A stretch of 41,653 bases of DNA, from positions 1-41,653 of IMG/VR virus record IMGVR_UViG_3300007351_000589; one strand, 5' to 3'. This stretch comes from a virus. Under the pieces are notes generated by a model. That model saw only the letters and a list, made by a program, of their open reading frames with translations. It was not told the DNA's origin and searched no databases. Below, one piece after another: positions 3,843-34,563 of the stretch (its first letter is position 1; each line of letters begins with the position of its first letter). The position numbers and the translations under genes are program-made.

Positions 3843-4244
3843 CTACTTCCAAAGCAACCATTCTGCGAAAACAACTGCGAGAAAGCAGATTATCCATAAA
3901 ATTACAGGACCAGTGGCACCTTTGAACACGGCCCATTTTGATTCAATAACGATAGGCCCGTGAATCCCGCGGAATAATTGAACCACACAGAAAGCACAAA
4001 TCACTGCGATGGGAACACCAAACGAGATTAGAAACTGATTAGTAATTATAGTAAACCATGTACCTTGCTTAGTACCAATCCATATTACTGAAGAGTATAG
4101 ATAAACAAGCAGTAGTATTACGAAAGCAACTGCAAGGAGGCTAATGCAGAGTGCAAATGAACGTATTAGTTTCACCCAACGAGACATTTCACGCTCGTCA
4201 AGGGATGTCATCGCGACATTCTCAGATACAGGCTCAGCTGACAA
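3843..4244 (-). CDS. Small three-TM membrane protein, last gene of cargo operon
   Basis: The 133-residue product has a charged N-terminus (about 28 residues) followed by three hydrophobic segments near residues 29-52, 70-92 and 112-132, so it should be an inner-membrane protein. The start is TTG at 4244, chosen because AGAGGTG lies four bases upstream and no in-frame ATG precedes it. It lies 50 bases after the flavoprotein gene on the same strand and probably shares its transcript. The segment KGATGPVILW between TM2 and TM3 looks like a conserved motif I have a vague memory of from unannotated small membrane proteins, but I cannot name a family. In a prophage such a protein could act in superinfection exclusion or partner the flavoprotein; neither is shown by the sequence. 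Confidence 0.62.
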   Translation of the reverse strand: MSAEPVSENVAMTSLDEREMSRWVKLIRSFALCISLLAVAFVILLLVYLYSSVIWIGTKQGTWFTIITNQFLISFGVPIAVICAFCVVQLFRGIHGPIVIESKWAVFKGATGPVILWIICFLAVVFAEWLLWK

Positions 4245-4294
4245 GTATCACCTCTATGGTTATAATGTATTTACGCCCATTTCATAATTAACCT

Positions 4295-5338
4295 TTATTT
4301 GAGCAACCGATTTACAATCGGGTATATTATTCTTTTCCAGGGCACAGGAGCATAAAGCTGATTCGCTCTCTGTACTGAATCATCAGAGTTGGCCATACTT
4401 GAGATAACAAATTTAAATCCCCTTGCTTTAATAACATCATAAATAAATCTATTAACAATCGAGGTTCTGCAGTACGGGACAATCTCTTTTTTCACTAAAT
4501 CCCAATAATTTTTGTTTTCAATGATAGATTTTGCTGCCAAATAGCCTGAGTGGAAAGCCATTCGTAACCCAAAACCCCACATCGCATCCTGGAAACCGGC
4601 GGATTCACCTGTTCTTGGAATGCCAGAGTGCAAATCCTTGAATCGTGCTCCACAACCTCCAAATTTTATCGAATTTTTTATATCGAAATTGATTATTTTG
4701 CTGAATCTTTCAATTGCTATAGGTACAAATTTGTTTATTTCATGATTAGTATGTTTGGAAACAACGGCTATCGTTCCATGTCCATTCAATCCAAGCAAAT
4801 ATGCATATCCACCAGGTGCGACTTTGTCATCGAAAATTCCTAACGCAATTTTTTCAAGATTTGTATCAAAATTTATGCCAGTAGCAATTAAAAAAGGTTT
4901 CTCATATCCTGTTGCAATGATATTAGGATTTATTTCGCCTATGTCCGAATTAAAGTGAAACTGCACGCCCAAGTTTATTGCTTTATTATACAAATATGAA
5001 TCAATTGTATTTTCCATAGAACCTCGCCTAATCAAATAAAATCCTACTTTATCAGAATGCATATTGTATTTATTTAGCTTGTAATCATAATGAACACATT
5101 CTTTGAAAGGCTCATGATAGAAGGCGGTATCGATATTTATTTGCTTTAAAAAGACCAATGCGTCCTGCGGAGAGGTCCAGTTTTCTAAGCCTTGGAAATC
5201 TCCTCGCGCCTGAGATCCGATAGTAGAGCGCCTATCGAAGACTTCCACCTTAAAATTATTTAAGGCCAAGTTTATTGCTGCGGTCATTCCTGAGATGCCC
5301 GCCCCAGCTATTGAAATGGATCTATTTTTACCCGGCAT
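4295..5338 (-). CDS. FAD-dependent oxidoreductase, geranylgeranyl-reductase-like
   Basis: The 347-residue product starts with a Rossmann dinucleotide-binding fold: GAGISG at residues 12-17 and an acidic Asp35 at the end of the second strand, fitting FAD binding. A second flavin motif, GESAGF...GFGLRMAFHSGYLAA at about 244-269, has the form found in geranylgeranyl reductases and related halogenase/hydroxylase-type flavoproteins. Such reductases hydrogenate isoprenoid double bonds in lipids or quinones; the substrate here is unknown. The ATG at 5338 was preferred over 5359 because GAGGTGA precedes it and overlaps the stop of the upstream membrane-protein gene, implying translational coupling. 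It is AT-rich and reversed within the late module, hence imported cargo. Flavin binding is well supported; the reductase subclass is tentative. Confidence 0.75.
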   Translation of the reverse strand: MPGKNRSISIAGAGISGMTAAINLALNNFKVEVFDRRSTIGSQARGDFQGLENWTSPQDALVFLKQINIDTAFYHEPFKECVHYDYKLNKYNMHSDKVGFYLIRRGSMENTIDSYLYNKAINLGVQFHFNSDIGEINPNIIATGYEKPFLIATGINFDTNLEKIALGIFDDKVAPGGYAYLLGLNGHGTIAVVSKHTNHEINKFVPIAIERFSKIINFDIKNSIKFGGCGARFKDLHSGIPRTGESAGFQDAMWGFGLRMAFHSGYLAAKSIIENKNYWDLVKKEIVPYCRTSIVNRFIYDVIKARGFKFVISSMANSDDSVQRANQLYAPVPWKRIIYPIVNRLLK

Positions 5339-5345
5339 TTTCACC

Positions 5346-6422
5346 TCATTTTGCCACATTTAGAAGACTCTTAAAGAATTCAGTTATTTGTATCCATGAT
5401 TGAGCCAATATCGTCGGCAGTAAACTACTTAGTAGAGCCAATAAAATACTGATCGAAGGAAACCTGAAGGACCATTCAGAAATTGATAAAATCTCATTTC
5501 GCATATCGAGAAACTCTTTGACCTTTATCTGGATTCCATCTACATTTGGGTCATGAAGACTAATGCCGTTTACTTTGTCTTCGAGAGCGTCTGATATATT
5601 TTTGAGAATTACCTCTTTTTCTTGTACAAGAATTCTGTGAATCGGCATTTGTGTGATAAAGAAATAGTAAATAGCCAAGGCCGTGAAGACAAGAGCCATT
5701 ATATTTACACCTATATGGTTTCTAATTGGACTAACCTTAACACCCACAATGCATGTCAAGGAGGCTAAGATAATAATAATTGAAAATCCAATATACTCCA
5801 TTCCCACACGGCGAAGTCCCGCCATACGGTTTCTAAAAAGGCTTAATCGTAACTTTTTATTTTTTAAATTATTCGGAATAAGCATGGTACGGATGACGAC
5901 GTTAATTCCAGCGCCACCTATAAAAGCTGCTAATGCCCAGAGAAACATAAAGTAATATCTGCTAAAATTATTAGAGTACCAACCTGTAAATCCCTTCGAT
6001 TCAAAATAAACTAAAGCGAAGAGCGCGGGACATGTTATAGTACCCCAGATAATTAATTGCTTTGATGAGTAAATCTTCTTGAGCAGGGTTTCAAGCCATC
6101 GATCCGTTTCACTTGGTTTTTCGCTTATTTCACAAATCACTGCAAGTAACTCTTCAAATTTTTTAGCGCTCCATACAATCGCAATTGCAATGTGAGTAAG
6201 CCCAAATATGACCGCCATTGGCAAATAAATCCTATAGGAAACGTTGTCTGCTGGATTAGCTGTAAATAGAAATACCAAGAACAGCGTTCCCCCAAGAAAA
6301 ACCCATGACGCAAAATATGGAAGGAAGGGCTTTGTACCAGAAAATTTTGTGAAAAAATTTGAGAGATGGAACCTGCAAGAGTTCTCCTGATCCACCAAAC
6401 TCTCAATTCTTAGGCTCTCCAT
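5346..6422 (-). CDS. Polytopic membrane protein, first gene of cargo operon
   Basis: The 358-residue product has about seven hydrophobic segments (near residues 33-53, 65-84, 123-140, 156-178, 209-228, 236-257, 322-342). A soluble loop at about 260-320 is rich in charged residues and may be helical. I do not recognise the family. The start follows GGAGGAG at a good distance, and a consensus-like promoter lies about 40 bases upstream. The stop overlaps the ribosome-binding site of the flavoprotein gene, so both are likely made together and may form a membrane-associated complex. A role in altering the lysogen envelope or blocking superinfection would fit a moron but is inference only. Composition is AT-rich relative to the flanking portal and scaffold genes. 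Confidence 0.65.
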   Translation of the reverse strand: MESLRIESLVDQENSCRFHLSNFFTKFSGTKPFLPYFASWVFLGGTLFLVFLFTANPADNVSYRIYLPMAVIFGLTHIAIAIVWSAKKFEELLAVICEISEKPSETDRWLETLLKKIYSSKQLIIWGTITCPALFALVYFESKGFTGWYSNNFSRYYFMFLWALAAFIGGAGINVVIRTMLIPNNLKNKKLRLSLFRNRMAGLRRVGMEYIGFSIIIILASLTCIVGVKVSPIRNHIGVNIMALVFTALAIYYFFITQMPIHRILVQEKEVILKNISDALEDKVNGISLHDPNVDGIQIKVKEFLDMRNEILSISEWSFRFPSISILLALLSSLLPTILAQSWIQITEFFKSLLNVAK

Positions 6423-22849: not shown

Positions 22850-23233
22850 ATGCCGGCTATTTCCTTCAAGACTCAACGAGTGCGGGAAGAATGGGAGAAA
22901 GGGCAACTGGATTCCCGGCTAAAGACAGTAGTGCGTGACCTGGGGCTGGAGATGGGCGGGGTCCGGATCACGATGATCGTGCGCCGGGATGACGAGATCG
23001 CCGCCTATGTGAAGGTCGGGGGATCACCCACCACGAAGCACCGGCTGGTCAACGGCCGCGCCCAGGCGGTGGACCTTACGCCTCCGCTGGATGCCCCGGA
23101 TAAGGACGCCTGGTACATCCGGGCGAAGGAATACCTAGATGGCCACTACCGGGGGCTGAAGGTCATAATCAAGCCGCATGGGACGGGGAGGCATTTGCAT
23201 GGGGAGATTGCGAGCGAAGTTGTTGTAATTTAA
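22850..23233 (+). CDS. Putative endolysin, M15-like (VanY/D-Ala-D-Ala carboxypeptidase-type) peptidase
   Basis: The 127-residue product carries a pattern like the zinc site of M15 peptidases: H64 in TTKHRL, then GRAQAVDL with Asp75, and later GRHLHGEI with His117 (or His115) as third ligand. M15 phage lysins cleave peptidoglycan peptide bonds. It is shorter than many full lysins and has no visible signal peptide or cell-wall-binding repeat, so it would need the upstream holin for access. GGAACGGAGA precedes the start. It is the last gene of the late module, followed by a terminator. An alternative is a related non-lytic phage protein with a partial M15 fold. Confidence 0.6.
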   Translation: MPAISFKTQRVREEWEKGQLDSRLKTVVRDLGLEMGGVRITMIVRRDDEIAAYVKVGGSPTTKHRLVNGRAQAVDLTPPLDAPDKDAWYIRAKEYLDGHYRGLKVIIKPHGTGRHLHGEIASEVVVI

Positions 23234-23268
23234 ACTAAAAGATAAATACCCACGAAAAATGCGCACAC

Positions 23269-23299
23269 GCCGAGCAAAACGCTTGGCGTTTCTGTTTTC
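23269..23299 (+). terminator. Rho-independent terminator of the late operon
   Basis: CGCCGAGC (23269-23276) pairs with GCTTGGCG (23282-23289) with one G-U pair and an AAAAC-type loop, followed by TTTCTGTTTT. It separates the structural and lysis genes from the restriction-modification cassette. Confidence 0.75.
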
Positions 23300-23312
23300 A
23301 CGAGAAATGTCT

Positions 23313-23341
23313 TGACATTGCGGGTATTTTCCTGTAAATTT
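23313..23341 (+). promoter_or_regulatory. Sigma70-type promoter of the restriction-modification cassette
   Basis: TTGACA (23313-23318) is a perfect -35 hexamer. After a 17-base spacer, TAAATT (23336-23341) is a weak -10 matching four of six positions. Initiation near 23348 leaves a leader of about 29 bases before the hsdR ATG at 23377. With the terminator just upstream, the cassette is an independent transcription unit. Confidence 0.65.
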
Positions 23342-23376: not shown

Positions 23377-26241
23377 ATGTCGGAAACCCCCGAACAAAAA
23401 GCTCGCCGTGAGATTGACAGTAACCTGAAGGCTGCCGGCTGGTTGGTGCAGGATAGGGCTGACCTGGACTTGTCAGCCGGTCGTGGCATCGCTGTGCGCG
23501 AATTTCCGATGAAGTCCGGTTTTGGCTTTGCAGACTACCTGCTCTACCTGGACCGGAAAGCAATCGGCGCGGTTGAAGCCAAAGCCGAAGGCACACTTTC
23601 AGGCGTGGAAGCACAGTCGGCGAAATACTCTGCCGGTTTGCCCGACAATCTTCCTGCCCATCGCCGTCCCCTTCCTTTCCTTTTCGAGTCGAATGGCGCA
23701 AAAACCTGCTATACTAACGGTCTTGATCCCCTGCCACGCAGCCGCGAAATCTTCAACTTTCCTCAACCGCAAACCTTAGCAGACCTGATTGAACAGCCCC
23801 ACCAGCTTCGCACCCTTCTCAGAGAAATGCCTGAGCTAAATGAAATCGGTCTTTGGAAAGTACAGGAACGGGCGATTCTAAATCTTGAAAAATCCTTCTT
23901 CGAGGCTCGGCCCCGAGGACTCATTCAAATGGCTACCGGATCGGGGAAAACCTTCCTGGCAGTCAGTTCATGCTACCGTCTTCTCAGATATGCCAAAGCC
24001 CGCCGAATTCTATTCCTGGTGGACCGCACTGGGCTTGGCAAGCAAGCTGAAGGGGAATTCCGTGATTTCACCGTACCGATGGATGGCCGCAAATTCGATG
24101 AACACTATCCCTTGCAGCGACTTCAGACCAATTCTATAAATACCGCATCAAAGGTTGTCATCACCACGATTCAGCGGTTATACTCAATGCTGAAGGGCGA
24201 GCCTGAATTTGATCCGGGCAATGAAGAAGGCTCAGGCTTCGATACCGCCAAAACTTGGAATGGCCCTCCGCCTGATGTCGCGTATAATGCCGCGATACCG
24301 CCTGAGTTTTTCGATTTCATCATTGTGGACGAATGCCATCGCTCCATCTACGACCTCTGGAGCCAGGTTCTTCTATATTTCGACGCCTTTCTCATAGGAC
24401 TTACAGCCACTCCTTACAAACGCACCATTGGTTTCTTCAAGCAGAATTTGGTGATGGAGTACGGTCACGCTGAGGCCGTTGCGGATGGCGTTAATGTGGA
24501 CTTTGACGTGTATTTGATTAGGACGAAAATTACTGAGGGGGGATCGAACCTTCCATCTGGCATTTACGTTGAAAAACGGCATAAGTTAACACGCGCCGAG
24601 AGGCTGGAGCAGCTTGAGGACGATCTTACGTATACAGCCAACCAGCTTGATCGCGAAGTGGTGTCCGAGAGTCAGATCCGAACTGTCATCCAGCAATTCA
24701 GAGATAAAGTGCTCCCAGAGGCATTCCCAGACCGCAAGGAAGTCCCAAAGACACTTATCTTTGCAAAAGATGACTCCCACGCGGATGATATTGTCAGAAT
24801 TGTGCGCGAAGAGTTTGGTCAGGGCAATGACTTCTGCCAAAAGATCACCTATCGAACAGGCTTTACCCGAGTCAACAAAAAGGTTATCAATCCAGACGGG
24901 ACGGAATCGGAGATCACCGAGTGGGTGAAGACCTCTTCACTTACTCCGGATGAGATCCTGGCAAACTTCCGCACCAGCTACTTCCCCAGGATTGCCGTCA
25001 CGGTAGATATGATTTCGACGGGGACAGATGTCAAAGCCATTGAATGCGTGATGTTCCTGCGCAACGTGAAATCTGCCGGGCTATTTGAGCAGATGAAAGG
25101 GCGCGGCGTTCGTGTGATTCACACTGATAAACTGCGTGAAGTTACACCCAGCGCAGCGGCGAAGGAACGTTTCATCGTCGTAGATGCCGTTGGCGTATGC
25201 GAGCAGGACAAAACCGAATCCCAGACACTGAACCGGCAACCTACCGTTCCGCTCGAGAAGCTGCTTGAGTACGTGGCACAAGGCGGCACTGACTCCGATG
25301 CGTTAACTACACTGGCTGGACGCCTGGCGCGGCTTCAACGTGATTTCTCACCTGAGCAACTGGCCGAGCTGAAAGAGCTCGCGGAAGGCAAATCACTCTC
25401 GGACTTGGCTCACAATCTATTAAATGCCTGCGACCCGGATAAGCAGCTTGAAGCGGCCAAGGAAGAATTCTCCACGCTTCAACCAACCGAGGTGCAGGTT
25501 GCCGAAGCGACAGAACGACTCACGGACATAGCGGTAAGGCCTTTTTTCAAACCTGCGCTGCGGCGGCGCATCCTGGAAATAAAGACTCAGAATGAACAGA
25601 CGATGGACCGGCATAGTATTGATGAAGTGCTTTATGCCGGATTTGATGCGGCCGCTGTTGAGAAAGCGCAGGCAAAGGTGCAGGACTTTCGGGCTTGGAT
25701 GGAGCAACATCGCGAGGAGCTCACTGCACTCCAGGTTATTTATAGCGGTACCAAGCCTCTGAATATCTCTTTGAAAGACCTTCGTCAACTGCGGGAGGCC
25801 TTGCTTGGTCCACCTCTGGCAGTATCGCCTAAGCAGCTATGGCGTGCCTTCCAAGCCGTCGATGGCGGGAATGTAGCAGTAGCGGTTACCGATAATTCAG
25901 CAGTAAAGGTGCGTGGCGGCGAACACTTGGCAGACCTGGTAACACTTGTCCGCCATGCCCTGACACCAGACGAGAATCTTGTTCCCTATGCAGATAATGT
26001 ACGTCAGCGGTACGCCGCATGGCGACAGGATATGGGACAGCAAGGCCGGCACTTCACTCCAGAGCAGAGTGAGTGGCTGGATCGCATGGCTGAACACATT
26101 GCCACCAGCCTATTTATCGAAGCTGGGGATTTTGAAGATGGATGGTTCGGGCAGCAAGGGAGTCTGGGTAAGGCATCGGCACTCTTCGGCTTAGAATTGC
26201 CAAAGCTAATTGAAGAAATGAATAAAAGGTTGGCCGCATGA
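23377..26241 (+). CDS. hsdR: Type I restriction enzyme, endonuclease/translocase subunit
   Basis: The 954-residue product has the full HsdR layout. The N-terminal nuclease shows Asp53 and the Glu67-Ala-Lys69 pair of a PD-(D/E)XK site. The SF2 motor has Walker A ATGSGKT (about 186-192), DECH (318-321), the LTATP motif about 25 residues later, and QMKGRGVR as helicase motif VI. A helical C-terminal region for assembly follows. HsdR pulls DNA using ATP and cuts far from the recognition site when bound to HsdM and HsdS at unmethylated targets. No frameshift is visible and all key residues are present, so it should be active. It overlaps hsdS by ATGA. It is first in the operon, an R-S-M order. Confidence 0.95.
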   Translation: MSETPEQKARREIDSNLKAAGWLVQDRADLDLSAGRGIAVREFPMKSGFGFADYLLYLDRKAIGAVEAKAEGTLSGVEAQSAKYSAGLPDNLPAHRRPLPFLFESNGAKTCYTNGLDPLPRSREIFNFPQPQTLADLIEQPHQLRTLLREMPELNEIGLWKVQERAILNLEKSFFEARPRGLIQMATGSGKTFLAVSSCYRLLRYAKARRILFLVDRTGLGKQAEGEFRDFTVPMDGRKFDEHYPLQRLQTNSINTASKVVITTIQRLYSMLKGEPEFDPGNEEGSGFDTAKTWNGPPPDVAYNAAIPPEFFDFIIVDECHRSIYDLWSQVLLYFDAFLIGLTATPYKRTIGFFKQNLVMEYGHAEAVADGVNVDFDVYLIRTKITEGGSNLPSGIYVEKRHKLTRAERLEQLEDDLTYTANQLDREVVSESQIRTVIQQFRDKVLPEAFPDRKEVPKTLIFAKDDSHADDIVRIVREEFGQGNDFCQKITYRTGFTRVNKKVINPDGTESEITEWVKTSSLTPDEILANFRTSYFPRIAVTVDMISTGTDVKAIECVMFLRNVKSAGLFEQMKGRGVRVIHTDKLREVTPSAAAKERFIVVDAVGVCEQDKTESQTLNRQPTVPLEKLLEYVAQGGTDSDALTTLAGRLARLQRDFSPEQLAELKELAEGKSLSDLAHNLLNACDPDKQLEAAKEEFSTLQPTEVQVAEATERLTDIAVRPFFKPALRRRILEIKTQNEQTMDRHSIDEVLYAGFDAAAVEKAQAKVQDFRAWMEQHREELTALQVIYSGTKPLNISLKDLRQLREALLGPPLAVSPKQLWRAFQAVDGGNVAVAVTDNSAVKVRGGEHLADLVTLVRHALTPDENLVPYADNVRQRYAAWRQDMGQQGRHFTPEQSEWLDRMAEHIATSLFIEAGDFEDGWFGQQGSLGKASALFGLELPKLIEEMNKRLAA

Positions 26242-27839
26242 GAGAGAAATTAAATTTTGAACATTATCCACTCCCAAGTGAAGCAGTAGCAGATGGTTGG
26301 GATTTAGTATGCTTGAGGGACATTGCAAAGCTAATTGCTTCAGGATTTGCCAGTGGACAGCATAATGATCAAGGTATAGGTGTTCCACATATACGGCCAA
26401 TGAATATCAATCGTGATGGCAATCTTGATCTTACAACACTCAAATACGTTGAAGGTAATGTCCCACGCGAACTCTCTGAAGGCGACGTTTTGTTTAATAA
26501 CACCAACAGCCCTGACCTTATAGGAAAATCGACTTCAATTCAAACAAATGTAAGACTTGGATATTCTAACCATATGACGCGTCTTCGGCTCGAAGATGGA
26601 TTACATCCCCAATTCTTTGCCCGACAATTACATTTTTTATGGATGTGTGGATATTTTCGTCATCGCTGTACAAATCACGTGAACCAAGCAAGCATCTCGA
26701 CCGATCCACTTGCAGACACGGTGCCTATTCACATCCCGCCAAGTGCTGAGCAGACAAGGATCATTGAAACACTGGATGAACTTACAACTGATCTCGATGC
26801 TGGTGTAGCGGCTTTACAAAGGGTGCAAGCCAGACTTAAAATTTACCGGGCGGCAGTCTTAAAAGCAGCGGTAGATGGGAGTCTGACTGAAGACTGGCGA
26901 CAGCAGCATCCCCACGTGGAGCCTGCCTCTGAACTGCTGAAAAGAATCCTGGTTGAACGCCGCAAGCGATGGGAAGAAGAGCAACTTCAAAAATTTACCA
27001 GGACAGGGAAAAATCCACCGAAGAATTGGCAGTCAAGATACAAGGAGCCAAAAGATCCTGACTTCTCGTGTATATGGGATACTCCCGAATCTTGGACGTG
27101 GGTAGGAGTCGAGGCGCTTGCAGTTGGTACATCCAATGCAATAAAGGCGGGACCCTTCGGCAGCTCACTCAAGAAGGAGCATTATGTAGCTGATGGTTAT
27201 AAGATATATGGGCAGGAGCAAGTAATTCGCAACGACCCACATTTCGGCGATTACTACATAAGCTCAGAGCATTATCAGAGACTTGCAAGTTGCTCTGTTA
27301 AAGCGGGTGATCTTCTTATCAGTCTTGTTGGTACGACTGGAAAAGTACTCATCCTTCCTACCAATCTTGAGCCCGGAATCATCAACCCACGATTGATCAA
27401 AATCAGTGTAAATCCTGAGTTTGTCTATGGAAAATATCTAAAGCTATTTATTGAGAGTCCACAAGCGCGAGCATTTATTAAAGAAAAGGCTCATGGCGAG
27501 ACAATGGATGTGCTAAACATGACCATTTTGAAGCAATTTCCATTGCCCTTGCCACCTTTTGAAGAGCAATTAGCAATAATCGAGACAGTTGAAGATCAAC
27601 TATCGATTATCGACCATATAGCCGCCGATGTCAATCAGAAACTAAAAGAAACATTCACCTTACGCCAAGCCATCCTCCAAAAAGCCTTTACAGGCCAACT
27701 TGTGTCCCAAGATCCGGACGACGAACCGGCTTCAGAGCTACTGAAACGTATCGCGACCGAGCGCGAAGCGTGCTTACGCGCTAAAGGCAACCATAAGACT
27801 GAAAGAATCACTAAAAGGCGAACTCGAAGAAAGAGTTAG
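26238..27839 (+). CDS. hsdS: Type I restriction enzyme, specificity subunit
   Basis: The 533-residue product has two target-recognition domains. The first spans about residues 15-180 and the second about 275-445. Each is followed by a conserved helical segment (EQTRIIETLDELTTDLDAG and EEQLAIIETVEDQLSIID) that forms the spacer coiled coils. AAVLKAAVDGSLT and AILQKAFTGQLV are the paired repeats typical of HsdS. It reads the two halves of a bipartite DNA target and binds two HsdM and up to two HsdR. The ATGA overlap with hsdR and the 15-base gap to hsdM imply one transcript. TRD sequences vary widely, so the recognised DNA site cannot be predicted here. The gene is intact and AT-richer than hsdR. 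Confidence 0.93.
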   Translation: MREKLNFEHYPLPSEAVADGWDLVCLRDIAKLIASGFASGQHNDQGIGVPHIRPMNINRDGNLDLTTLKYVEGNVPRELSEGDVLFNNTNSPDLIGKSTSIQTNVRLGYSNHMTRLRLEDGLHPQFFARQLHFLWMCGYFRHRCTNHVNQASISTDPLADTVPIHIPPSAEQTRIIETLDELTTDLDAGVAALQRVQARLKIYRAAVLKAAVDGSLTEDWRQQHPHVEPASELLKRILVERRKRWEEEQLQKFTRTGKNPPKNWQSRYKEPKDPDFSCIWDTPESWTWVGVEALAVGTSNAIKAGPFGSSLKKEHYVADGYKIYGQEQVIRNDPHFGDYYISSEHYQRLASCSVKAGDLLISLVGTTGKVLILPTNLEPGIINPRLIKISVNPEFVYGKYLKLFIESPQARAFIKEKAHGETMDVLNMTILKQFPLPLPPFEEQLAIIETVEDQLSIIDHIAADVNQKLKETFTLRQAILQKAFTGQLVSQDPDDEPASELLKRIATEREACLRAKGNHKTERITKRRTRRKS

Positions 27840-27854
27840 CAGGACCACTCCTTC

Positions 27855-29369
27855 ATGGAAACTTCACAGATTGGCAACAGGGCATGGAGCTTCGCCCAGG
27901 TCCTTCGTGACGATGGGTTAAGCTACGCCCAATATATCGAACAACTCACGATGCTGCTCTTCCTGAAAATGGCAGATCAGCTTACGGAGTCTCCTTATAA
28001 CCGTCCAGCGATCATCCCTTCCGAACTGGATTGGAAATCTCTTCGCAAGCTGGATGGTGTAGACCTGGAGAATCATTATCGGCACATCCTGGAAGAGCTG
28101 GGGAAGAAGGATGGGATGCTGGGCGTAATTTATCGCCGTGCACGTTGTGAGATCAGCAATCCGGCGATGTTGAAGCAGCTCATCGTGAATTTGATTGATA
28201 AAGAGAATTGGCTCAGCTTATCAGTGGATGTCAAGGGGACCATTTACGAGGAGTTGCTGGCGCGTTCTGCAGCGGAATCTACCAAGGGAGCCGGACAGTA
28301 CTTCACGACCCGAGCCGTGATACAAGCCATTATTGATGTAATGAGACCCCAACCTTCGGATCGCATATGCGATCCGGCCGCAGGTACCGGCGGATTCCTA
28401 ACCAGAGCATATCAATTTGTGCTTGATAATTATGAACGTGATCTTGACAGGGATGAAAAGAAAGCTGTCAAGGAAGACCTTGTTGAAGCGATGGAGCTGA
28501 CACCTTTGGCAGGCCGCTTGTGCGCCATGAACCTATACCTTCATGGGATTGGTGGCGATAAGGTGGTGGTACAAGCTGGGCATGACAGTCTGGCGGCTAC
28601 CTGGAGTAAAGAATATTCAATGGTGTTAACCAATCCCCCATTTGGGAAAAAGAGTAGCCTGACGTTTGTGAACGAAGAAGGCGATGCTAAACAGGAAGAC
28701 CGGGTTATTGTGCGCGAAGACTTCTGGACCAGTACCAGCAACAAGCAGATGAACTTCGTGCAGCATATCTATACCTTACTCAAAATCGGCGGCAGAGCCG
28801 CAGTCGTTGTGCCGGACAATGTACTCTTCGAGGGTGGTGCAGGTGAGACCATACGCCGCAATCTGCTTCAGAAGTGTAACGTTCACACTTTACTCCGCCT
28901 CCCGACAGGAATCTGGTACAAACCAGGTGTCAAGGCCAATGTGCTTTTCTTCGAGAAGCGCGAAGGCCGGCCAGAGCCTTGGACAACCAAGCTCTGGGTT
29001 TATGATCTGCGCACAAACAAGCATTTTACGTTGAAGCAGGACCCGATCAAGCGGGAAGACTTCGATGAGTTCGTGGCCTGCTACAGCGCAGGCAACATCT
29101 ATGAGCGAAAGGAAACCTGGAGCGAGGAAAATCCAGACGGCCGCTGGCGCTGCTACGACTACGAAGAGATCCTGAAGCGCGACAAGCTCAGTCTCGATCT
29201 ATTCTGGATCAAGGACCAGAGCCTGACCGACACCGATTCCCTTCCACACCCGAGCATCCTGGCCCAGGAGATCGCGGATGATCTGGAAACGGCGCTGGAG
29301 CAGTTTACGAAGATAGCGGCGAGATTAAATATTACACACGCTCTTCCCGAGCAAGGCAGAGAACAATGA
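27855..29369 (+). CDS. hsdM: Type I restriction enzyme, adenine methyltransferase subunit
   Basis: The 504-residue product has the N-terminal helical HsdM domain (AQYIEQLTMLLFLKMAD), then GQYFT before the SAM-binding motif DPAAGTGGF (173-181), and the catalytic motif IV NPPF at 260-263. It methylates adenine at N6 in the target read by HsdS and protects host and prophage DNA. Length is normal and motifs are complete. It overlaps the next gene by ATGA, so the flavoprotein gene is translationally coupled to the RM system. This link is what ties the four downstream genes to hsdRSM. Confidence 0.95.
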   Translation: METSQIGNRAWSFAQVLRDDGLSYAQYIEQLTMLLFLKMADQLTESPYNRPAIIPSELDWKSLRKLDGVDLENHYRHILEELGKKDGMLGVIYRRARCEISNPAMLKQLIVNLIDKENWLSLSVDVKGTIYEELLARSAAESTKGAGQYFTTRAVIQAIIDVMRPQPSDRICDPAAGTGGFLTRAYQFVLDNYERDLDRDEKKAVKEDLVEAMELTPLAGRLCAMNLYLHGIGGDKVVVQAGHDSLAATWSKEYSMVLTNPPFGKKSSLTFVNEEGDAKQEDRVIVREDFWTSTSNKQMNFVQHIYTLLKIGGRAAVVVPDNVLFEGGAGETIRRNLLQKCNVHTLLRLPTGIWYKPGVKANVLFFEKREGRPEPWTTKLWVYDLRTNKHFTLKQDPIKREDFDEFVACYSAGNIYERKETWSEENPDGRWRCYDYEEILKRDKLSLDLFWIKDQSLTDTDSLPHPSILAQEIADDLETALEQFTKIAARLNITHALPEQGREQ

Positions 29370-30583
29370 AAAGCTCTACAGGTACGTCCGCTGGGATATC
29401 CGTTGCAATTATTGGTGGAGGTTTAGCAGGTATTCTCTGCGCGATTAGGCTCGCACGATCAAAAGTTCATTGCCTACTTATTGATCACTCGCTGCCAAAT
29501 GCGGAGGGAATGCTGGGGGGATTCGCCAGATTCTCCGGATCAAAATTTTCAGTTCCACCTGCGGGGTTAGGTTTAACAAAATTATCTGGATCAATCGATA
29601 AATTAAGGGAAATATCAGATGAAATTCTCGGTATAATGGGCATTACAGGCCAGGCACTTCCACTGGTTACTCGAATGGAAGCTGTTCCTATCTCGGGCTC
29701 TTTGGTTCATCGCCCGTACGACTGTATTGTTCTTTCTGAGCAAGAGATGTGCGATCTGCTTAATCGTATAACAACCTTCTCGGTATCAGTAGCGATCAGC
29801 CGATCTTTATGTACCAAAATATCACAAGACGGGCGTCTCTGGAATTTAGTGCTACGTGAGAGCGATGGCACTTTAAAGCAGATTCAGGTAGAAACTGTTT
29901 TCTTTGCGGGTGGAAGAAACGGCGCTAAAGTGCTGTTGGACACTGGATTAGCTCCGATGAATGGGAAGGGCATTGATCTTGGGATACGGATTGAATTTCC
30001 CGACTGGAAGTCCATCGAGCCACTAAAGACCTTAGGACAGGATGCAAAGATACTCTTTGAAAATTGTCGTACTTTTTGTGTAAATTGTCCAGGCGAAATA
30101 TATTGGCATGCGTATGAGGATATTGAGATAGCGGGTGGTATATCAACAGCCGATTCTAAGAGCCTATCTGCGAATTTTGGATTGCTATACCGACTCTATA
30201 GCAAGGAAGGGCAATTAGACAAAATAAGACAATCCATCCGAGACGCACAAACTTCGGGTGTTTACAGACGGACTTATAATATTATTGGCAAGGACTTGGG
30301 CAAAGCATATCCAGCGATAGAACGGTTGTACGGTGGAAATGTAGCAGAGATGCTCAGCAAATTCAAAATTGAGCTTGCAGAGAGTGGTCTTATCAGATGC
30401 GAAGCTCTACACTTAGCCCATTTGCCTCTCTTAGACTGGCATTGGCCTGTCTTTGGGGCAGGTAGCAGCTTTCAAACTTCACTCCCGAATCTTTTCGTAA
30501 TGGGGGATGCTGCTGGCTATGCGAGAGGTCTATTACAGGCAGCAGTGTCCGGCTGGTTAGCAGCGGAGGAGTATCTCAGATGA
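29366..30583 (+). CDS. FAD-dependent oxidoreductase linked to the RM cassette
   Basis: The 405-residue product has an N-terminal Rossmann motif GGGLAG (17-22) with Asp40 ending the second strand, and a C-terminal flavin motif MGDAAGYARGLLQAAVSG (379-396). Together they define a two-dinucleotide-domain-like or COG2509-like flavoprotein. A Cys-containing loop (CRTFCVNCPG, about residues 230-240) holds three cysteines that might be redox-active or bind metal. The substrate is unknown. It overlaps hsdM by ATGA and the HD gene by ATGA, so it belongs to the same operon. Flavoproteins are not part of standard type I RM systems. Possible roles are redox sensing, base or nucleotide modification, or tRNA/lipid modification; none is shown. 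Confidence 0.78.
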   Translation: MKSSTGTSAGISVAIIGGGLAGILCAIRLARSKVHCLLIDHSLPNAEGMLGGFARFSGSKFSVPPAGLGLTKLSGSIDKLREISDEILGIMGITGQALPLVTRMEAVPISGSLVHRPYDCIVLSEQEMCDLLNRITTFSVSVAISRSLCTKISQDGRLWNLVLRESDGTLKQIQVETVFFAGGRNGAKVLLDTGLAPMNGKGIDLGIRIEFPDWKSIEPLKTLGQDAKILFENCRTFCVNCPGEIYWHAYEDIEIAGGISTADSKSLSANFGLLYRLYSKEGQLDKIRQSIRDAQTSGVYRRTYNIIGKDLGKAYPAIERLYGGNVAEMLSKFKIELAESGLIRCEALHLAHLPLLDWHWPVFGAGSSFQTSLPNLFVMGDAAGYARGLLQAAVSGWLAAEEYLR

Positions 30584-31905
30584 ATATACAAAAATATAGA
30601 GTTTGGGACCCATTATACGGACTGATGGATTTCTCTCCGTTAGAGGCACAGTTCATCTTTTCGCCTGAAGTCCAACGGTTAAGGCATGTTCGTCTTTGTA
30701 ACATTGATTCACTACTTCTGCCAGGAGCCGCCAATGTATCTCGTTTCGAGCATGCGTTGGGAGTACTTCGTTTAGCAAATGAGTGGTTATCTGTACACCA
30801 TATCCATTCTGATAAAGCGAATGACCTGCGTATTGCTGCCATAGTCCATGATATCCAATCTGGTCCCTTCGGTCATTCAATACAGTATATTCTCGAAGAT
30901 AATAAGCTTGGCGCAGATTTTGGTCATGAGGACCTGGCAGAGGCTCAGGCACATAGTTATCATCAAGATATACCAGCCAATGAATCATATGTAGGGGTAA
31001 AATTTCGAGTCAGAGCGATGTGTGGTGAGCGCTGGCCTATAATATCAGATATGATCAAAGGCGAAAGTCAATTAGGGTCATTGATTTCAGGCACTTTAGA
31101 TTTAGACAATCTGGATAATGTTATCAGGCTGGCTTTTCATACTGGCCTTTGTAGTAGAATTGAGGCAGAGCAAGCCATTGAGCTAGCAAAAGTAATTGCG
31201 CCAACGCCCCAGGGAATTGCTATTCCATCTCAGAAGGTATACCTTATCGAGCAATGGCAGAAGGTACGAAAAAATCTTTATGAATTCTTACTCTATGATT
31301 GGGCTGAATTCTCAGCGAAGGCGATGCTTACCAGAGCTTTTGAAGATGCAGTAGGCCAAAAATTCGTTGGGACTGATAACTGGCGGATGACTGATGATGA
31401 ATTAATCCAATACTTCTTAGATAAAGCGATAGGCGAAACACAAAGTGTTAAAGAAATGGTGCGACGCCTGCGCTTAGGAGAATTATATACACCGATCCTG
31501 ATCGGTTCATCCGCAGCGGTTGAAAATTACAAGGTGCTGAACCAAATCAAGACTAAGCGAAATATTGAGAAAGAAATTCTAAGATCCGTCTACAAGGGAC
31601 GTGGGGGTACACAAGTACTTATTCACTTCATCCTCGATATCAATAAGATCGAACGTGCTGTGGAAGTCACGCTAAAGGACACGTTAAAACAAATAGAAGT
31701 CGGGCAGAATTCAAGGTCTCTTTTAATAGGTGTATTTACATCAGCGGCACCTACACCAAGGGAACGTGAAATGCTACAGGTAAAAGCTTTGCAAGTGCTT
31801 GCGAATAGTGGATGTCCAGAGATTCGTTTTATACCAGATCCTCTGGCAAAACCGAAAACCCCTGATAATCAAATGAAACTTTTCAATGGACCCGAAACTA
31901 CTTAG
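30580..31905 (+). CDS. HD-domain phosphohydrolase, SAMHD1/dGTPase-like
   Basis: The 441-residue product begins as SAMHD1-type dNTP hydrolases do: DPLYGLMDFSPLE, then RLRHVRL, RFEHALGV (His58), VHDIQSGPFGHS (His90-Asp91, His99) and a later DLDNLDNVIR (Asp174/176). These supply the H...HD...D metal site. Family members (COG1078) remove triphosphate from dNTPs and some restrict phages by lowering dNTP pools. The C-terminal 200 residues are family-specific and not assigned. It overlaps the previous gene by ATGA and the methyltransferase gene by 20 bases. The substrate may be a dNTP, a modified nucleotide or a signal nucleotide. All visible metal ligands are intact, so activity is likely. Confidence 0.85.
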   Translation: MNIQKYRVWDPLYGLMDFSPLEAQFIFSPEVQRLRHVRLCNIDSLLLPGAANVSRFEHALGVLRLANEWLSVHHIHSDKANDLRIAAIVHDIQSGPFGHSIQYILEDNKLGADFGHEDLAEAQAHSYHQDIPANESYVGVKFRVRAMCGERWPIISDMIKGESQLGSLISGTLDLDNLDNVIRLAFHTGLCSRIEAEQAIELAKVIAPTPQGIAIPSQKVYLIEQWQKVRKNLYEFLLYDWAEFSAKAMLTRAFEDAVGQKFVGTDNWRMTDDELIQYFLDKAIGETQSVKEMVRRLRLGELYTPILIGSSAAVENYKVLNQIKTKRNIEKEILRSVYKGRGGTQVLIHFILDINKIERAVEVTLKDTLKQIEVGQNSRSLLIGVFTSAAPTPREREMLQVKALQVLANSGCPEIRFIPDPLAKPKTPDNQMKLFNGPETT

Positions 31906-33157
31906 ACAATTGCAGGCCGTTGATTGGGATTTCCCGCGCTGGAACAAGGAGACAACATCAGCGATTCACTGGTATCCTGGGACATTCCCATCGCAGCTAC
32001 CGGCAGCATTGATTGAGGCTCTCTCCCAGCCAAATACCCTTGTCTTTGATCCATACGCGGGGATAGGGACTACCGGGCTGGAAGCCCTTCGTCTCGGAAG
32101 GAATTCTTGGTGCGTAGATCAAAATCCTGTAGGTGTTCTGGCTTCTTACGTAATGTCTGGATTGGTTCTATACAAAGCAATCTCATTACCCCATATGAGT
32201 CAAGATCCTCTTACAATCCTTGAAGAAGCAATTTTTGGAACCAAAAATAAAGTTGGCTTGCTGTCCTATGGCAAGAACGATGATGCAGAAATCTTCTCCA
32301 AAATATTGTCCCCGCAGCCCGATGAAATGTTATCTACAATGATGTCAAGAATGCCGACTAATTGGGAAATGCTTTGCAAATGGTATGAAAAAGATACTCT
32401 TCAACAAATAAGAACTACCGCTGAAGATCTTCAGATGTTAGTGTTGCCAGCTTTCGTGAAACTCATTGGAATGCTTATGATCTCATCGGCACTTCGACCA
32501 TCGTGCTCCCAAACAATTAGTTGGGGGCATGTAGCTGATAAAGTTCTACCCAAAACCTATGAAAAGAAGGACTTTATCGGTGTTTGTAAAAAGTGGATCT
32601 ATAGAATCCGAGCAATTCTTGCAAGGGCAACAGTGGTACCACGTGATATTAATACTTCCAGCGTATGCGCCTCGGTGTCCATGCATGATTGGCAATCATC
32701 CGATAGGCTTATAAGACCTTCTCGAGGAAAGAGTGAACTGTTAATTACATCTCCGCCTTATGGTGGTGCGATTGATTATGTCAGAGCACAAAGACTCTCT
32801 TTATACTATTTAGGATTCAGCGAAGATGATATAACGCAGCTTGGGGAACACGAGATTGGTTCCAGACGAAAGCGGTTTAGTCCACAATCTTTGACTATGT
32901 GGGCATCTGAATTGTCCAACTGCATTCTGGATCAGCTCAAATTCCTCACGAATGATGGCTATCTTGTAATAATTTTGCCTCACAAGGATCATGGTCGAGA
33001 AGAAGGTGCGCAAAAGTTAAACAAAGTACTTAATGATATAAATTGGCAATGTGTATTCAAAGCGGATCGATCAATCCATCAGCTTAGGACAAGGCAAAAA
33101 CAGACATGGACTAGAATTAAGCGGGAAACAATTGAAATATTTGAATATGGAGGATAA
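31886..33157 (+). CDS. DNA methyltransferase (TSPPY-type, probable N4-cytosine or N6-adenine)
   Basis: The 423-residue product has HWYPGTFPSQLPAALI (about 28-43) leading into the SAM motif FDPYAGIGTT (54-63), and the catalytic motif TSPPYGG at 288-294 followed by DYVRAQRLS. TSPPY is commonest in N4-cytosine methyltransferases. Between them lies a region of about 220 residues that could hold the target-recognition part. It is not an HsdM: motif order and spacing differ and it lacks the HsdM helical domain. It starts 20 bases inside the HD gene without a clear Shine-Dalgarno site, so translation is coupled. The kinase-fusion gene follows after four bases. It may mark DNA so that a partner system spares self, or may methylate independently. 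Confidence 0.8.
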   Translation: MDPKLLRQLQAVDWDFPRWNKETTSAIHWYPGTFPSQLPAALIEALSQPNTLVFDPYAGIGTTGLEALRLGRNSWCVDQNPVGVLASYVMSGLVLYKAISLPHMSQDPLTILEEAIFGTKNKVGLLSYGKNDDAEIFSKILSPQPDEMLSTMMSRMPTNWEMLCKWYEKDTLQQIRTTAEDLQMLVLPAFVKLIGMLMISSALRPSCSQTISWGHVADKVLPKTYEKKDFIGVCKKWIYRIRAILARATVVPRDINTSSVCASVSMHDWQSSDRLIRPSRGKSELLITSPPYGGAIDYVRAQRLSLYYLGFSEDDITQLGEHEIGSRRKRFSPQSLTMWASELSNCILDQLKFLTNDGYLVIILPHKDHGREEGAQKLNKVLNDINWQCVFKADRSIHQLRTRQKQTWTRIKRETIEIFEYGG

Positions 33158-33161
33158 TGCA

Positions 33162-34472
33162 ATGAGAACGATACTTGTACTCGTGGGGGTTAGAGGCTCA
33201 GGAAAATCCACTCTTATACGACGCCTCCCATCCATACATGGAGTAGTCTATCTTCAGCCTTCGACAACTCGCATTAAGAGGCCTGATGACGATGATCAAT
33301 ACGACCATGTTGAGAAGGGTAATTGGAACTCATCAGATTACGCTTGGGCGATTCAATTAAAAGATGAAAACTATGGAATACGAACATCAGAAATAAAAGC
33401 TCTCGAACATAGCAGGCTTGGCGTAACTGTTTTTCATCCAGGACATATAGAAGTATTGAAAGAATTTGATAAATCGACTGATATTGAGATCATCACAGTC
33501 GGCTTAGATACAGTTCTGACATACAAAATATTGCGCCAAAGGATCGGTGATAACGGTGATCGTGATGAAGGCGAGAGCACATTTGAAGATCAGCTTAAAG
33601 TTGTCAACGAATGTGATATTATTTTAAAAGGGGATAAGGAACAAATATACAAGGCATTCAATTCTGTAGTAGAATTACTGTCTTCCCGTGGTGTACTTGT
33701 GAAAGATTCGATCACCAATCTAATAAACGCCGGAACCCTTCTTGAGAACACTGTCAATGAGAATATTAAACCTGCAAGCTATGATCTTCGTGTCGGAAGT
33801 ACTGCATGGTGTAAAGGGGAAACAATAAAAATTGATGCTGATGGAAAAATCGCGATTCCACCTTACTCTTATATTATTATTAAAGCAGAAGAACAGGCAC
33901 ATTTACCTAACTTCATCATAGCCCATTATGATATTAGGGTTTCATTATTCGTAAAAGGAGTGATTCTATCAAATGGACCCCAAGTTGATCCGGGCTTTCA
34001 TGGCAGTTTATTATGTATGCTATTCAACGGGAGTGATACAAAAATTGGTTTGAGGCGAGGAGAACATTTTGCGACTATAGAATTTTTTATAACCACAAAA
34101 AAGACTCTAGGATACAGAGAACATCATCAGGGTAAGAAAAGTCTTGAAGATTACATGGAGAGTACAATTGCGTTTGGTCCTGGTGGCACAATTAGCGATA
34201 AGTTCGATGATTTGAAGAAAACCTGGGAAACTTACAGAAATTCAATAATCATTATTGGTATTACTCTTATTATTGCATTAGTTTCAGCGCCTGCTTTTCT
34301 CGTATGGTGGGGATATGATATGGCTAAACAAAATGAAATAATGAGAGCTCAAATTATGAGGGATTCAAAGGAAGTACATGATCTAATAATTGAAGAACGC
34401 GCATTAAGGGATTCTCTACATTCTGCAATTAGTGATTCTACCACTTCCAATGATGTAAATAAACAGAATTAA
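33162..34472 (+). CDS. Guanylate-kinase-like + dUTPase/dCTP-deaminase-like + TM fusion protein
   Basis: The 436-residue product has three parts. Residues 1-175 resemble guanylate kinase: P-loop GVRGSGKST, then QPSTTRIKRP like the GMP-binding TTR.RRP motif. Residues of about 190-325 resemble the trimeric dUTPase/dCTP deaminase fold: NIKPASYDLRVGS, then VDPGFHGS (275-282) and LRRGEHFATIEFF. A single TM helix (about 362-385) and a 50-residue polar tail follow. In dCTP deaminases a Glu is expected four to five residues after the PGF.G motif; aligning by eye to E. coli Dcd places Met286 there. The domain may therefore bind but not deaminate nucleotides. GGAGG precedes ATG 33162, which I preferred to in-frame starts at 33051 and 33147. 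It ends the operon. I know of no described protein with this order. Confidence 0.78.
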   Translation: MRTILVLVGVRGSGKSTLIRRLPSIHGVVYLQPSTTRIKRPDDDDQYDHVEKGNWNSSDYAWAIQLKDENYGIRTSEIKALEHSRLGVTVFHPGHIEVLKEFDKSTDIEIITVGLDTVLTYKILRQRIGDNGDRDEGESTFEDQLKVVNECDIILKGDKEQIYKAFNSVVELLSSRGVLVKDSITNLINAGTLLENTVNENIKPASYDLRVGSTAWCKGETIKIDADGKIAIPPYSYIIIKAEEQAHLPNFIIAHYDIRVSLFVKGVILSNGPQVDPGFHGSLLCMLFNGSDTKIGLRRGEHFATIEFFITTKKTLGYREHHQGKKSLEDYMESTIAFGPGGTISDKFDDLKKTWETYRNSIIIIGITLIIALVSAPAFLVWWGYDMAKQNEIMRAQIMRDSKEVHDLIIEERALRDSLHSAISDSTTSNDVNKQN

Positions 34473-34513: not shown

Positions 34514-34552
34514 AAGCCCCGGCGAGGTCTACCACAACCTGCCGGGGCTTTT
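34514..34552 (+). terminator. Rho-independent terminator of the defence-like cassette
   Basis: AAGCCCCGGC (34514-34523) pairs perfectly with GCCGGGGCTT (34541-34550). An inner AGGT/ACCT stem extends it, and TTTT follows. It closes the plus-strand cassette. Its AT-rich left flank could give weak activity in reverse. Confidence 0.8.
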
Positions 34553-34563
34553 GCGCGTCTGAA

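What the first reader, a model, noticed from the sequence alone, without database searches (positions are those of the whole stretch)
29366..34472. Four-gene flavoprotein/HD/methyltransferase/kinase-fusion module coupled to a type I RM system
The flavoprotein, HD hydrolase, TSPPY methyltransferase and kinase-dUTPase-TM fusion follow hsdM with overlaps of 4, 4 and 20 bases and a 4-base gap. Translation looks coupled from hsdR to the end of the operon. HD dNTPases and nucleotide deaminases are each known as separate antiphage effectors (established). Here an HD hydrolase and a dCTP-deaminase-like fold sit in one operon with a flavoprotein and a self-marking methyltransferase. I know of no described system with this set; that novelty and the defensive role are inference. 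An alternative is a DNA-base modification pathway.
Basis: partly seen in the sequence, partly recalled or inferred. Interest (0 to 1): 0.85.

Follow-up and report, generated by a model that had tools for sequence, protein, structure and literature searches.

The report
Mobile flavoprotein–HD–methyltransferase–kinase cassette
A bacterial virus dormant in this genome carries four tightly packed genes that travel together as a unit in distant bacteria and match no system we could find described; they look like a self-contained immunity or nucleotide-chemistry kit whose job still has to be tested.

Summary
The four genes lie at 29366-34472 with the stated overlaps, as accessory cargo of a prophage. 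They recur as a set in at least eight other loci (Pseudomonas, Litchfieldella, Bradyrhizobium, Rhodoblastus, Rhizobium plasmid, Treponema, a Verrucomicrobiota MAG, a family relative), and the four families co-diverge. The type I RM system is a neighbour, not a part: no other four-gene locus has it.

A wider family exists. In all 11 loci where both genes are covered, HD and methyltransferase genes overlap (1-47 nt), beside a membrane protein and a variable enzyme: FAD dehydrogenase plus guanylate-kinase-like/DCD fusion, carbamoyltransferase-ASCH, or AIRS-like (a twelfth locus, cut by its contig end, has a QueC-like gene).

The HD metal site is intact, but SAMHD1's dNTP-contact residues are replaced. 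The DCD domain lacks the deaminase glutamate. The kinase keeps its phosphate-binding residues but has Trp for the guanine-reading Glu.

Best reading: a mobile, probably defensive system with a coupled HD-methyltransferase core and a membrane-tethered nucleotide sensor (function ~0.5). Main rival: a base or nucleotide modification pathway. No PADLOC or literature match was found; no function was tested.

The parts
29366..30583 (+). FAD-dependent dehydrogenase-like flavoprotein (COG2509-like, nearest fold 3nlc)
   Evidence: model pLDDT 81.5; Foldseek best by TM 3nlc, TMq 0.71; present in all nine four-gene loci, incomplete at the contig end in L012 and split in L002
30580..31905 (+). SAMHD1-like HD phosphohydrolase; metal ligands H58, H90, D91, D176; also H99 and H116
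31886..33157 (+). Class I (N4-C-like) DNA methyltransferase, motif I DPYAGIGTTG, motif IV TSPPY, family motif EIG(A/S)RxxR; start overlaps the HD gene by 20 nt
33162..34472 (+). Kinase-DCD-TM-coiled-coil fusion protein
33162..33677 (+). Guanylate-kinase-like P-loop domain (residues 1-172): GxxGxGK, STTRxxR, YG; guanine-reading Glu replaced by W62
33687..34139 (+). DCD/dUTPase-fold domain (residues 176-326); deaminase Glu replaced by Met286, D276 of DPG kept
34245..34301 (+). Transmembrane helix (residues 362-380), followed by a long predicted helix / coiled coil to about residue 426
23312..23340 (+). Promoter-like site (TTGACA-17-TAAATT) ahead of the cargo operon, after a terminator-like hairpin at 23267-23289
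   Evidence: consensus match only
34519..34558 (+). Terminator-like hairpin GCCCCGGC...GCCGGGGCTTTT closing the operon (read by eye; not in the scan's list because of its long loop)
   Evidence: Sequence
23377..29369 (+). Neighbour, not a conserved part: type I restriction genes hsdR (23377-26241), hsdS (26238-27839), hsdM (27855-29369)
   Evidence: absent from all other four-gene loci

Best explanation
The four genes form one mobile, self-contained system. It belongs to a wider, undescribed family whose core is an HD phosphohydrolase translated in overlap with a DNA-methyltransferase-type enzyme. The core always sits with a membrane protein, and in every locus with a complete enough contig with one or more swappable nucleotide- or base-chemistry enzymes. 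Most likely it is a defence system against phages or other mobile DNA. Inferred steps: (1) the methyltransferase marks or recognises DNA as self; (2) the flavoenzyme and the guanylate-kinase-like domain make or adjust a nucleotide ligand; (3) the membrane-tethered DCD fold, which has lost deaminase residues, binds that ligand as sensor or regulator; (4) the HD hydrolase is the catalytic output, acting on a nucleotide that is not a standard dNTP. Shown here: the co-conservation, the gene coupling, the domain and residue state, the mobility. Not shown: any activity, any substrate, any defence.
For: A scan seeded only with the methyltransferase returned six loci, each with HD, FAD and kinase-DCD genes beside it; R. 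etli pA and a family relative make nine with the window. Family distances correlate (Mantel r 0.72-0.87, p 0.0004-0.04). HD and methyltransferase overlap by 1-47 nt in 11 of 11 loci, and every locus carries a TM protein, including the three divergent ones. Mobile context: this prophage (integrase, major head protein, RusA), phage portal gene next door in L030, integrase in L013, resolvases in L015 and L016, IS110 in L014. Patchy and rare: 0-3 hits per 141-395 genomes sampled. Low GC (0.38-0.45) against 0.55-0.67 in most of the prophage, with own promoter-like and terminator-like sites. The DCD-TM-coiled-coil half recurs with an adenylosuccinate-synthetase-like enzyme and a nuclease/kinase fusion in L043, which points to a nucleotide-sensing module. 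A PNP-type effector-like gene precedes the R. etli copy.
Against: No phage or expression data. None of the four proteins has a specific PADLOC match (the methyltransferase hits generic type II MTase models only). Flavoenzyme, kinase, QueC-like, AIRS-like and carbamoyltransferase partners also fit a biosynthetic or base-modification pathway. The roles of sensor and effector are assigned from architecture only.
Confidence: 0.5

Rival explanations
1. A DNA-base or nucleotide modification pathway. The flavoenzyme (elsewhere a carbamoyltransferase, AIRS-like or QueC-like enzyme) and the methyltransferase build a modified base, the altered guanylate-kinase-like domain phosphorylates the modified dNMP, and the HD enzyme clears a competing nucleotide, as DatZ and dCTPases do in base-substituting phages (recalled). 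The mark would protect the element from restriction.
For: Partner enzymes are of base- or nucleoside-chemistry type. The kinase keeps its phosphate-binding residues but has lost the guanine-reading Glu. HD and DCD lost the residues that fit canonical nucleotides. The window copy is in a prophage.
Against: No thymidylate-synthase-like hydroxymethylase or dedicated polymerase in the module. The kinase is degenerate or absent where the DCD is kept (L018). A membrane anchor is conserved, which a soluble pathway would not need. Most copies are chromosomal or on integrative elements rather than in phage genomes, and scans of viral contigs for the HD and methyltransferase families found none.
Confidence: 0.25
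2. Nucleotide-depletion defence: the HD enzyme is a dNTP triphosphohydrolase switched on by infection, as in the anti-phage dGTPase and Clover CloA systems; the other three genes regulate it.
For: Best PDB relatives by sequence are SAMHD1-type dNTPases and bacterial HD phosphohydrolases. Metal ligands and H99/H116 are invariant. Clover shows that nucleotide signals regulate an HD effector (PMC12265719).
Against: SAMHD1 residues Q149, H210, K312, Y315 and D319 (numbers recalled) are replaced by L/M, S/T, N, N and L/F in all nine members. No PADLOC dGTPase match for the window protein. No nucleotidyltransferase partner in the operon.
Confidence: 0.12
3. Synthesis of a nucleoside antimetabolite or chain terminator, in the manner of the cordycepin cluster (oxidoreductase, HD phosphohydrolase, nucleoside kinase) or of viperins.
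For: Same enzyme classes: redox enzyme, HD phosphohydrolase, P-loop nucleotide kinase. Nearby nucleotide-type genes in single loci: LOG-type in L013, DUF1937 in L016 and a PNP-type phosphorylase in R. etli.
Against: No exporter or obvious self-resistance gene. The methyltransferase resembles DNA m4C enzymes. The fold of the redox enzyme differs. The analogy rests on class-level resemblance only.
Confidence: 0.08
4. An accidental assembly: unrelated cargo genes gathered next to a restriction system in a prophage.
For: GC differs between the restriction genes and the module; cargo regions of mobile elements do gather genes.
Against: Nine loci with the same set, mostly in the same order, and correlated divergence.
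Confidence: 0.02

Closest known systems
Anti-phage dGTPase and Clover (CloA-CloB)
   Same: HD phosphohydrolase as likely catalytic output in a mobile operon with nucleotide-handling partners
   Different: Here SAMHD1-like rather than dGTPase-like, dNTP-contact residues replaced, no nucleotidyltransferase; methyltransferase, flavoenzyme and membrane-tethered kinase-DCD instead (PMC12265719)
dCTP-deaminase defence (AvcD type)
   Same: A 'dCTP deaminase' label on one component
   Different: The DCD-fold domain has lost the catalytic Glu and Arg and is fused to a kinase and a TM helix; AvcD is a different, zinc-dependent deaminase fold (recalled)
Type II RM with m4C methyltransferases and PLD nuclease
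   Same: Plasmid methyltransferases detected with a divergent member of the family as query are paired with a second methyltransferase and a PLD-type gene
   Different: HD hydrolase in place of a nuclease; no known endonuclease in the module
Base-substitution clusters of phages (DatZ/PurZ, T4 hmC)
   Same: HD-type nucleotidase plus nucleotide kinase plus base chemistry (recalled)
   Different: No PurZ, hydroxymethylase or polymerase in the module; conserved membrane anchor; mostly not in phage genomes
Cordycepin cluster (Cns1-Cns3)
   Same: Oxidoreductase, HD phosphohydrolase and nucleoside kinase together (recalled; cluster named in papers found, not read)
   Different: Different redox fold, extra DNA-type methyltransferase, DCD and TM parts; bacterial mobile elements
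DCD-TM-coiled-coil operon with adenylosuccinate synthetase (L043, unnamed)
   Same: Same DCD-TM-coiled-coil architecture, BLASTP E 1e-13
   Different: Partners are an RNase_H_2/DUF429/AAA_18 fusion and an adenylosuccinate-synthetase-like enzyme

Membership tests
SAMHD1/dGTPase-type dNTP triphosphohydrolase defence | HD metal site (H, HD, D) | tested here: met
   H58, H90, D91, D176 invariant in nine members
SAMHD1/dGTPase-type dNTP triphosphohydrolase defence | dNTP sugar and phosphate contacts of SAMHD1 (Q149, H210, K312, Y315, D319) | tested here: not met
   Aligned positions 39, 94, 177, 180, 184 are L/M, S/T, N, N, L/F in all nine; SAMHD1 numbering recalled
SAMHD1/dGTPase-type dNTP triphosphohydrolase defence | Match to the PADLOC dGTPase profile | tested here: not met
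   No PADLOC family for the window HD protein at E 0.1; only a weak hit for the divergent L032 protein
dCTP deaminase | DCD fold by profile | tested here: met
   PF22769 50.1 bits, cut-off 27
dCTP deaminase | Catalytic Glu (E138) and Arg (R115) of E. coli Dcd | tested here: not met
   Position 286 is M/L, position 265 variable; alignment to PDB members; Dcd numbering recalled
dUTPase | Conserved Asp of the third motif | tested here: inconclusive
   D276 in Q(V/I)DPG invariant in eight members; other dUTPase motifs not assessed
Guanylate kinase | Fold and phosphate-binding residues (P-loop, TTRxxR, YG) | tested here: met
   Foldseek TMt mostly 0.5-0.68; residues conserved except in L018; PF00625 passes its cut-off in L017 but is not listed for the window protein
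Guanylate kinase | Guanine-reading Glu | tested here: not met
   Aligned to W62 (Y in L017)
DNA m4C/m6A methyltransferase | SAM motif I and catalytic (D/S)PPY motif | tested here: met
   Motif I and TSPPY in all nine
DNA m4C/m6A methyltransferase | Methylation of DNA in vivo | not testable with these tools
   Needs long-read methylome or LC-MS
Type I restriction-modification as part of the system | hsdRSM linked to the four genes in other genomes | tested here: not met
   tblastn finds hsdRSM only in the divergent L030 locus
Clover (CloA-CloB) | CloB nucleotidyltransferase next to the HD gene | tested here: not met
   No nucleotidyltransferase among the genes of the four-gene operons
Named systems in PADLOC-DB 2.0 | Specific profile match for flavoprotein, HD, kinase-DCD | tested here: not met
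   newer DefenseFinder models were not available

The most novel reading that the evidence does not exclude
An undescribed, modular class of mobile defence systems: a coupled HD hydrolase-methyltransferase core with interchangeable base- or nucleotide-chemistry enzymes, read out by a membrane-tethered, deaminase-dead DCD-fold nucleotide sensor. The ligand would be a new modified nucleotide.
Probability: 0.33. Interest if true: 0.88.

Novelty: categorically new. Interest (0 to 1): 0.72.

Why it matters
If the defence reading holds, it adds a system kind in which self-marking methyltransferase and nucleotide hydrolase are built as one unit and the chemistry around them is swapped between lineages, with a DCD fold reused as a membrane-bound nucleotide sensor. 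If the modification reading holds, it points to unknown modified nucleotides made by mobile elements. Either way the set is compact (5.1 kb), has natural homologues for comparison, and is directly testable by cloning, phage plating and nucleotide LC-MS.

Tried and rejected
Type I RM as an integral partner: rejected as a general feature. Chance assembly: rejected by recurrence and co-divergence. Canonical dNTPase and dCTP deaminase activities: disfavoured on residues. PDB entry 9mr6 as a possible defence protein: it is a fungal SAMHD1 (PMC12042053). Scans of viral contigs for HD and methyltransferase found no relatives; phage records gave no hit for the window methyltransferase. A scan with the divergent L030 methyltransferase gave only generic methyltransferases. 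Wider plasmid methyltransferase hits lack the HD gene and pair with PLD-type genes. Literature searches for the gene combination gave nothing relevant; the library lacks most subscription papers. The DCD part of the fusion model is of low confidence, so its residues were read from sequence alignment, not from the model.
Full report
Setting. The window lies in a 6.4-Mb draft genome (G000, contig 40) and is a prophage: integrase, major head protein and RusA by PHROGs, with other structural genes by position. The restriction genes and the four genes of the finding form one + strand block at 23377-34472, between a short late-region ORF at 22850-23233 (endolysin-like by eye; no PHROGs match) and minus-strand early genes. 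The block has a terminator-like hairpin and a good promoter-like site just before hsdR (23267-23340) and terminator-like hairpins after gene four. GC is 0.47-0.52 in most of the restriction genes and 0.38-0.45 in most of the module, against 0.55-0.67 in most of the phage. It therefore looks like accessory cargo, acquired in at least two pieces (inference).

Observation. Coordinates and overlaps are right. One correction: hsdS and hsdM are separated by 15 nt, so the overlap chain is not unbroken from hsdR.

What the proteins are. The flavoprotein has an FAD/NAD-binding N-terminus. Its AlphaFold2 model (pLDDT 81.5) matches 3nlc from Vibrio, an uncharacterised FAD protein, at TM 0.71; the other top-listed matches are below 0.5. 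The assignment to COG2509 is mine, from the fold match and from the cysteine-rich insert of the Treponema homologue. The HD protein is SAMHD1-like. The methyltransferase has motif I (DPYAGIGTTG) and TSPPY; its nearest PDB relatives include m4C enzymes such as PvuII methyltransferase. The fourth protein is a guanylate-kinase-like domain, a DCD/dUTPase-fold domain (PF22769), one TM helix and a long C-terminal helix.

Recurrence. Starting from R. etli plasmid pA and a relative from the same family as the host (G022), I made a methyltransferase profile and scanned one genome for each of 84,980 species. Six loci were confirmed: a Verrucomicrobiota MAG, Pseudomonas cedrina, Litchfieldella anticariensis, Bradyrhizobium retamae, Rhodoblastus acidophilus and a rumen Treponema MAG. 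The other three genes were not part of the query, yet all were found beside each hit. Order is FAD-HD-MT-kinase/DCD, except in Treponema (FAD last) and Rhodoblastus (kinase-DCD divergent, with its TM-helix part as a separate gene). In the MAG L012 the FAD gene is cut by the contig end. In R. etli the flavoprotein gene is split between two frames and the kinase lacks the DCD part: a decayed copy. In G022 the kinase part is degenerate but DCD-TM is kept. Distances between members correlate for all six gene pairs (Mantel r 0.72-0.87). The system is rare: genome samples of 141-395 gave zero to two HD hits beyond the centre genome.

Restriction genes are not part of it. tblastn with HsdR, HsdS and HsdM finds them in no other four-gene locus.

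A wider family. Genome searches with the HD profile gave three divergent loci. In a second prophage (L030; phage portal gene next door), hsdR-M-S lie upstream, then HD, methyltransferase, a protein with two C-terminal TM helices, and a carbamoyltransferase fused to an ASCH domain. In L032 a TM protein, HD, methyltransferase and an AIRS-like enzyme are joined. In L031 a QueC-like protein (below the Pfam cut-off), a three-TM protein and HD run into the contig end. In all 11 loci where both genes are covered, HD and methyltransferase overlap by 1 to 47 nt, and every locus has a TM protein. This is the strongest pointer to how the system is built: a coupled HD-methyltransferase core, a membrane component and variable chemistry.

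Residues. Against SAMHD1 (numbering recalled), metal ligands H58, H90, D91 and D176 and residues aligned with H215 and H233 are invariant. The residues aligned with Q149, H210, K312, Y315 and D319 are L/M, S/T, N, N and L/F in all nine proteins. So the enzyme is probably active but not on an ordinary dNTP (inference). In the DCD domain the deaminase Glu is M/L and the Arg is variable, while D276 is invariant; I read it as a nucleotide-binding or dUTPase-like domain, not a deaminase. In the kinase, P-loop, TTRxxR and YG are kept but the Glu that reads guanine is W62 (Y in Treponema), so base specificity is probably changed.

A second context for the DCD-TM half. In L043 a 305-residue DCD-TM-coiled-coil protein (E 1e-13 to the window protein) follows an adenylosuccinate-synthetase-like gene and a fusion of RNase_H_2, DUF429 and AAA_18. 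Seven viral contigs carry DCD proteins, six of them ending in a hydrophobic, probably membrane-spanning, segment (read by eye). A membrane-tethered DCD fold is thus a reused part, which supports a role as nucleotide sensor or regulator.

Mechanism. I favour a mobile defence system with the division of labour given in the best explanation. Evidence for defence is circumstantial: mobile elements, rarity and patchiness, neighbouring restriction genes in two prophages, a PNP effector-like gene in R. etli, and a methyltransferase translated with a hydrolase. The modification rival is serious, because the swapped partners are base- or nucleoside-chemistry enzymes and both HD and kinase appear re-tuned in specificity. 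Function confidence is about 0.5; confidence that the four genes are one conserved unit is above 0.95.

Comparison. Clover shows an HD effector controlled by nucleotide signals (PMC12265719); the present set works at most like it and is not a member, since the partner and the substrate residues differ. None of the PADLOC profiles names the flavoprotein, HD or kinase-DCD proteins, and literature searches found no description. The novelty claim is limited to these sources: PADLOC is from 2023, current DefenseFinder models were not at hand, and only open-licence papers were searchable.

Noticed in passing
window 3843-6422, minus strand: A second AT-rich (GC about 0.37) cargo patch between portal and scaffold-type genes: an FAD/NAD-binding protein (4295-5359) flanked by two apparently membrane-associated proteins.
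   Followed up: partly
L043 4072-7971 (G1816:C13): Unnamed three-gene operon: RNase_H_2/DUF429/AAA_18 fusion, adenylosuccinate-synthetase-like enzyme, DCD-TM-coiled-coil protein, inserted between ATP synthase genes and a parAB/rsmG-type region.
   Followed up: partly
L046, L048-L052 (viral contigs): DCD-fold proteins of about 220-270 residues with a hydrophobic C-terminal tail, near phage lysis, terminase or regulator-type genes; tail-anchored DCD proteins appear to be a common phage part.
   Followed up: partly
L030 9564-15995: In the second prophage with HD-MTase, the type I RM genes are followed by a Hypoth_Ymh protein, an HATPase protein, a short STAS/DUF4325-like ORF and a PIN-like protein (the last two by eye).
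   Followed up: no
L002 8975-10810: Upstream of the decayed R. etli cassette lies a 611-residue protein with a C-terminal PNP/UDP phosphorylase domain, similar to PADLOC effector profiles.
   Followed up: partly
L035, L037, L038 (plasmids): Methyltransferases distantly related to this family lie in pairs next to a phospholipase-D-like gene, like a two-methyltransferase type II restriction system.
   Followed up: no
L016 7718-9310: A second FAD protein with a cysteine-rich insert lies convergent to the Rhodoblastus cassette; its C-terminus resembles the cassette's flavoprotein.
   Followed up: no
L013 10660-11223; L016 3506-3919: Single nucleotide-type accessory genes hug the cassettes: a LOG/SLOG-like protein in Pseudomonas and a DUF1937 protein in Rhodoblastus.
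   Followed up: partly
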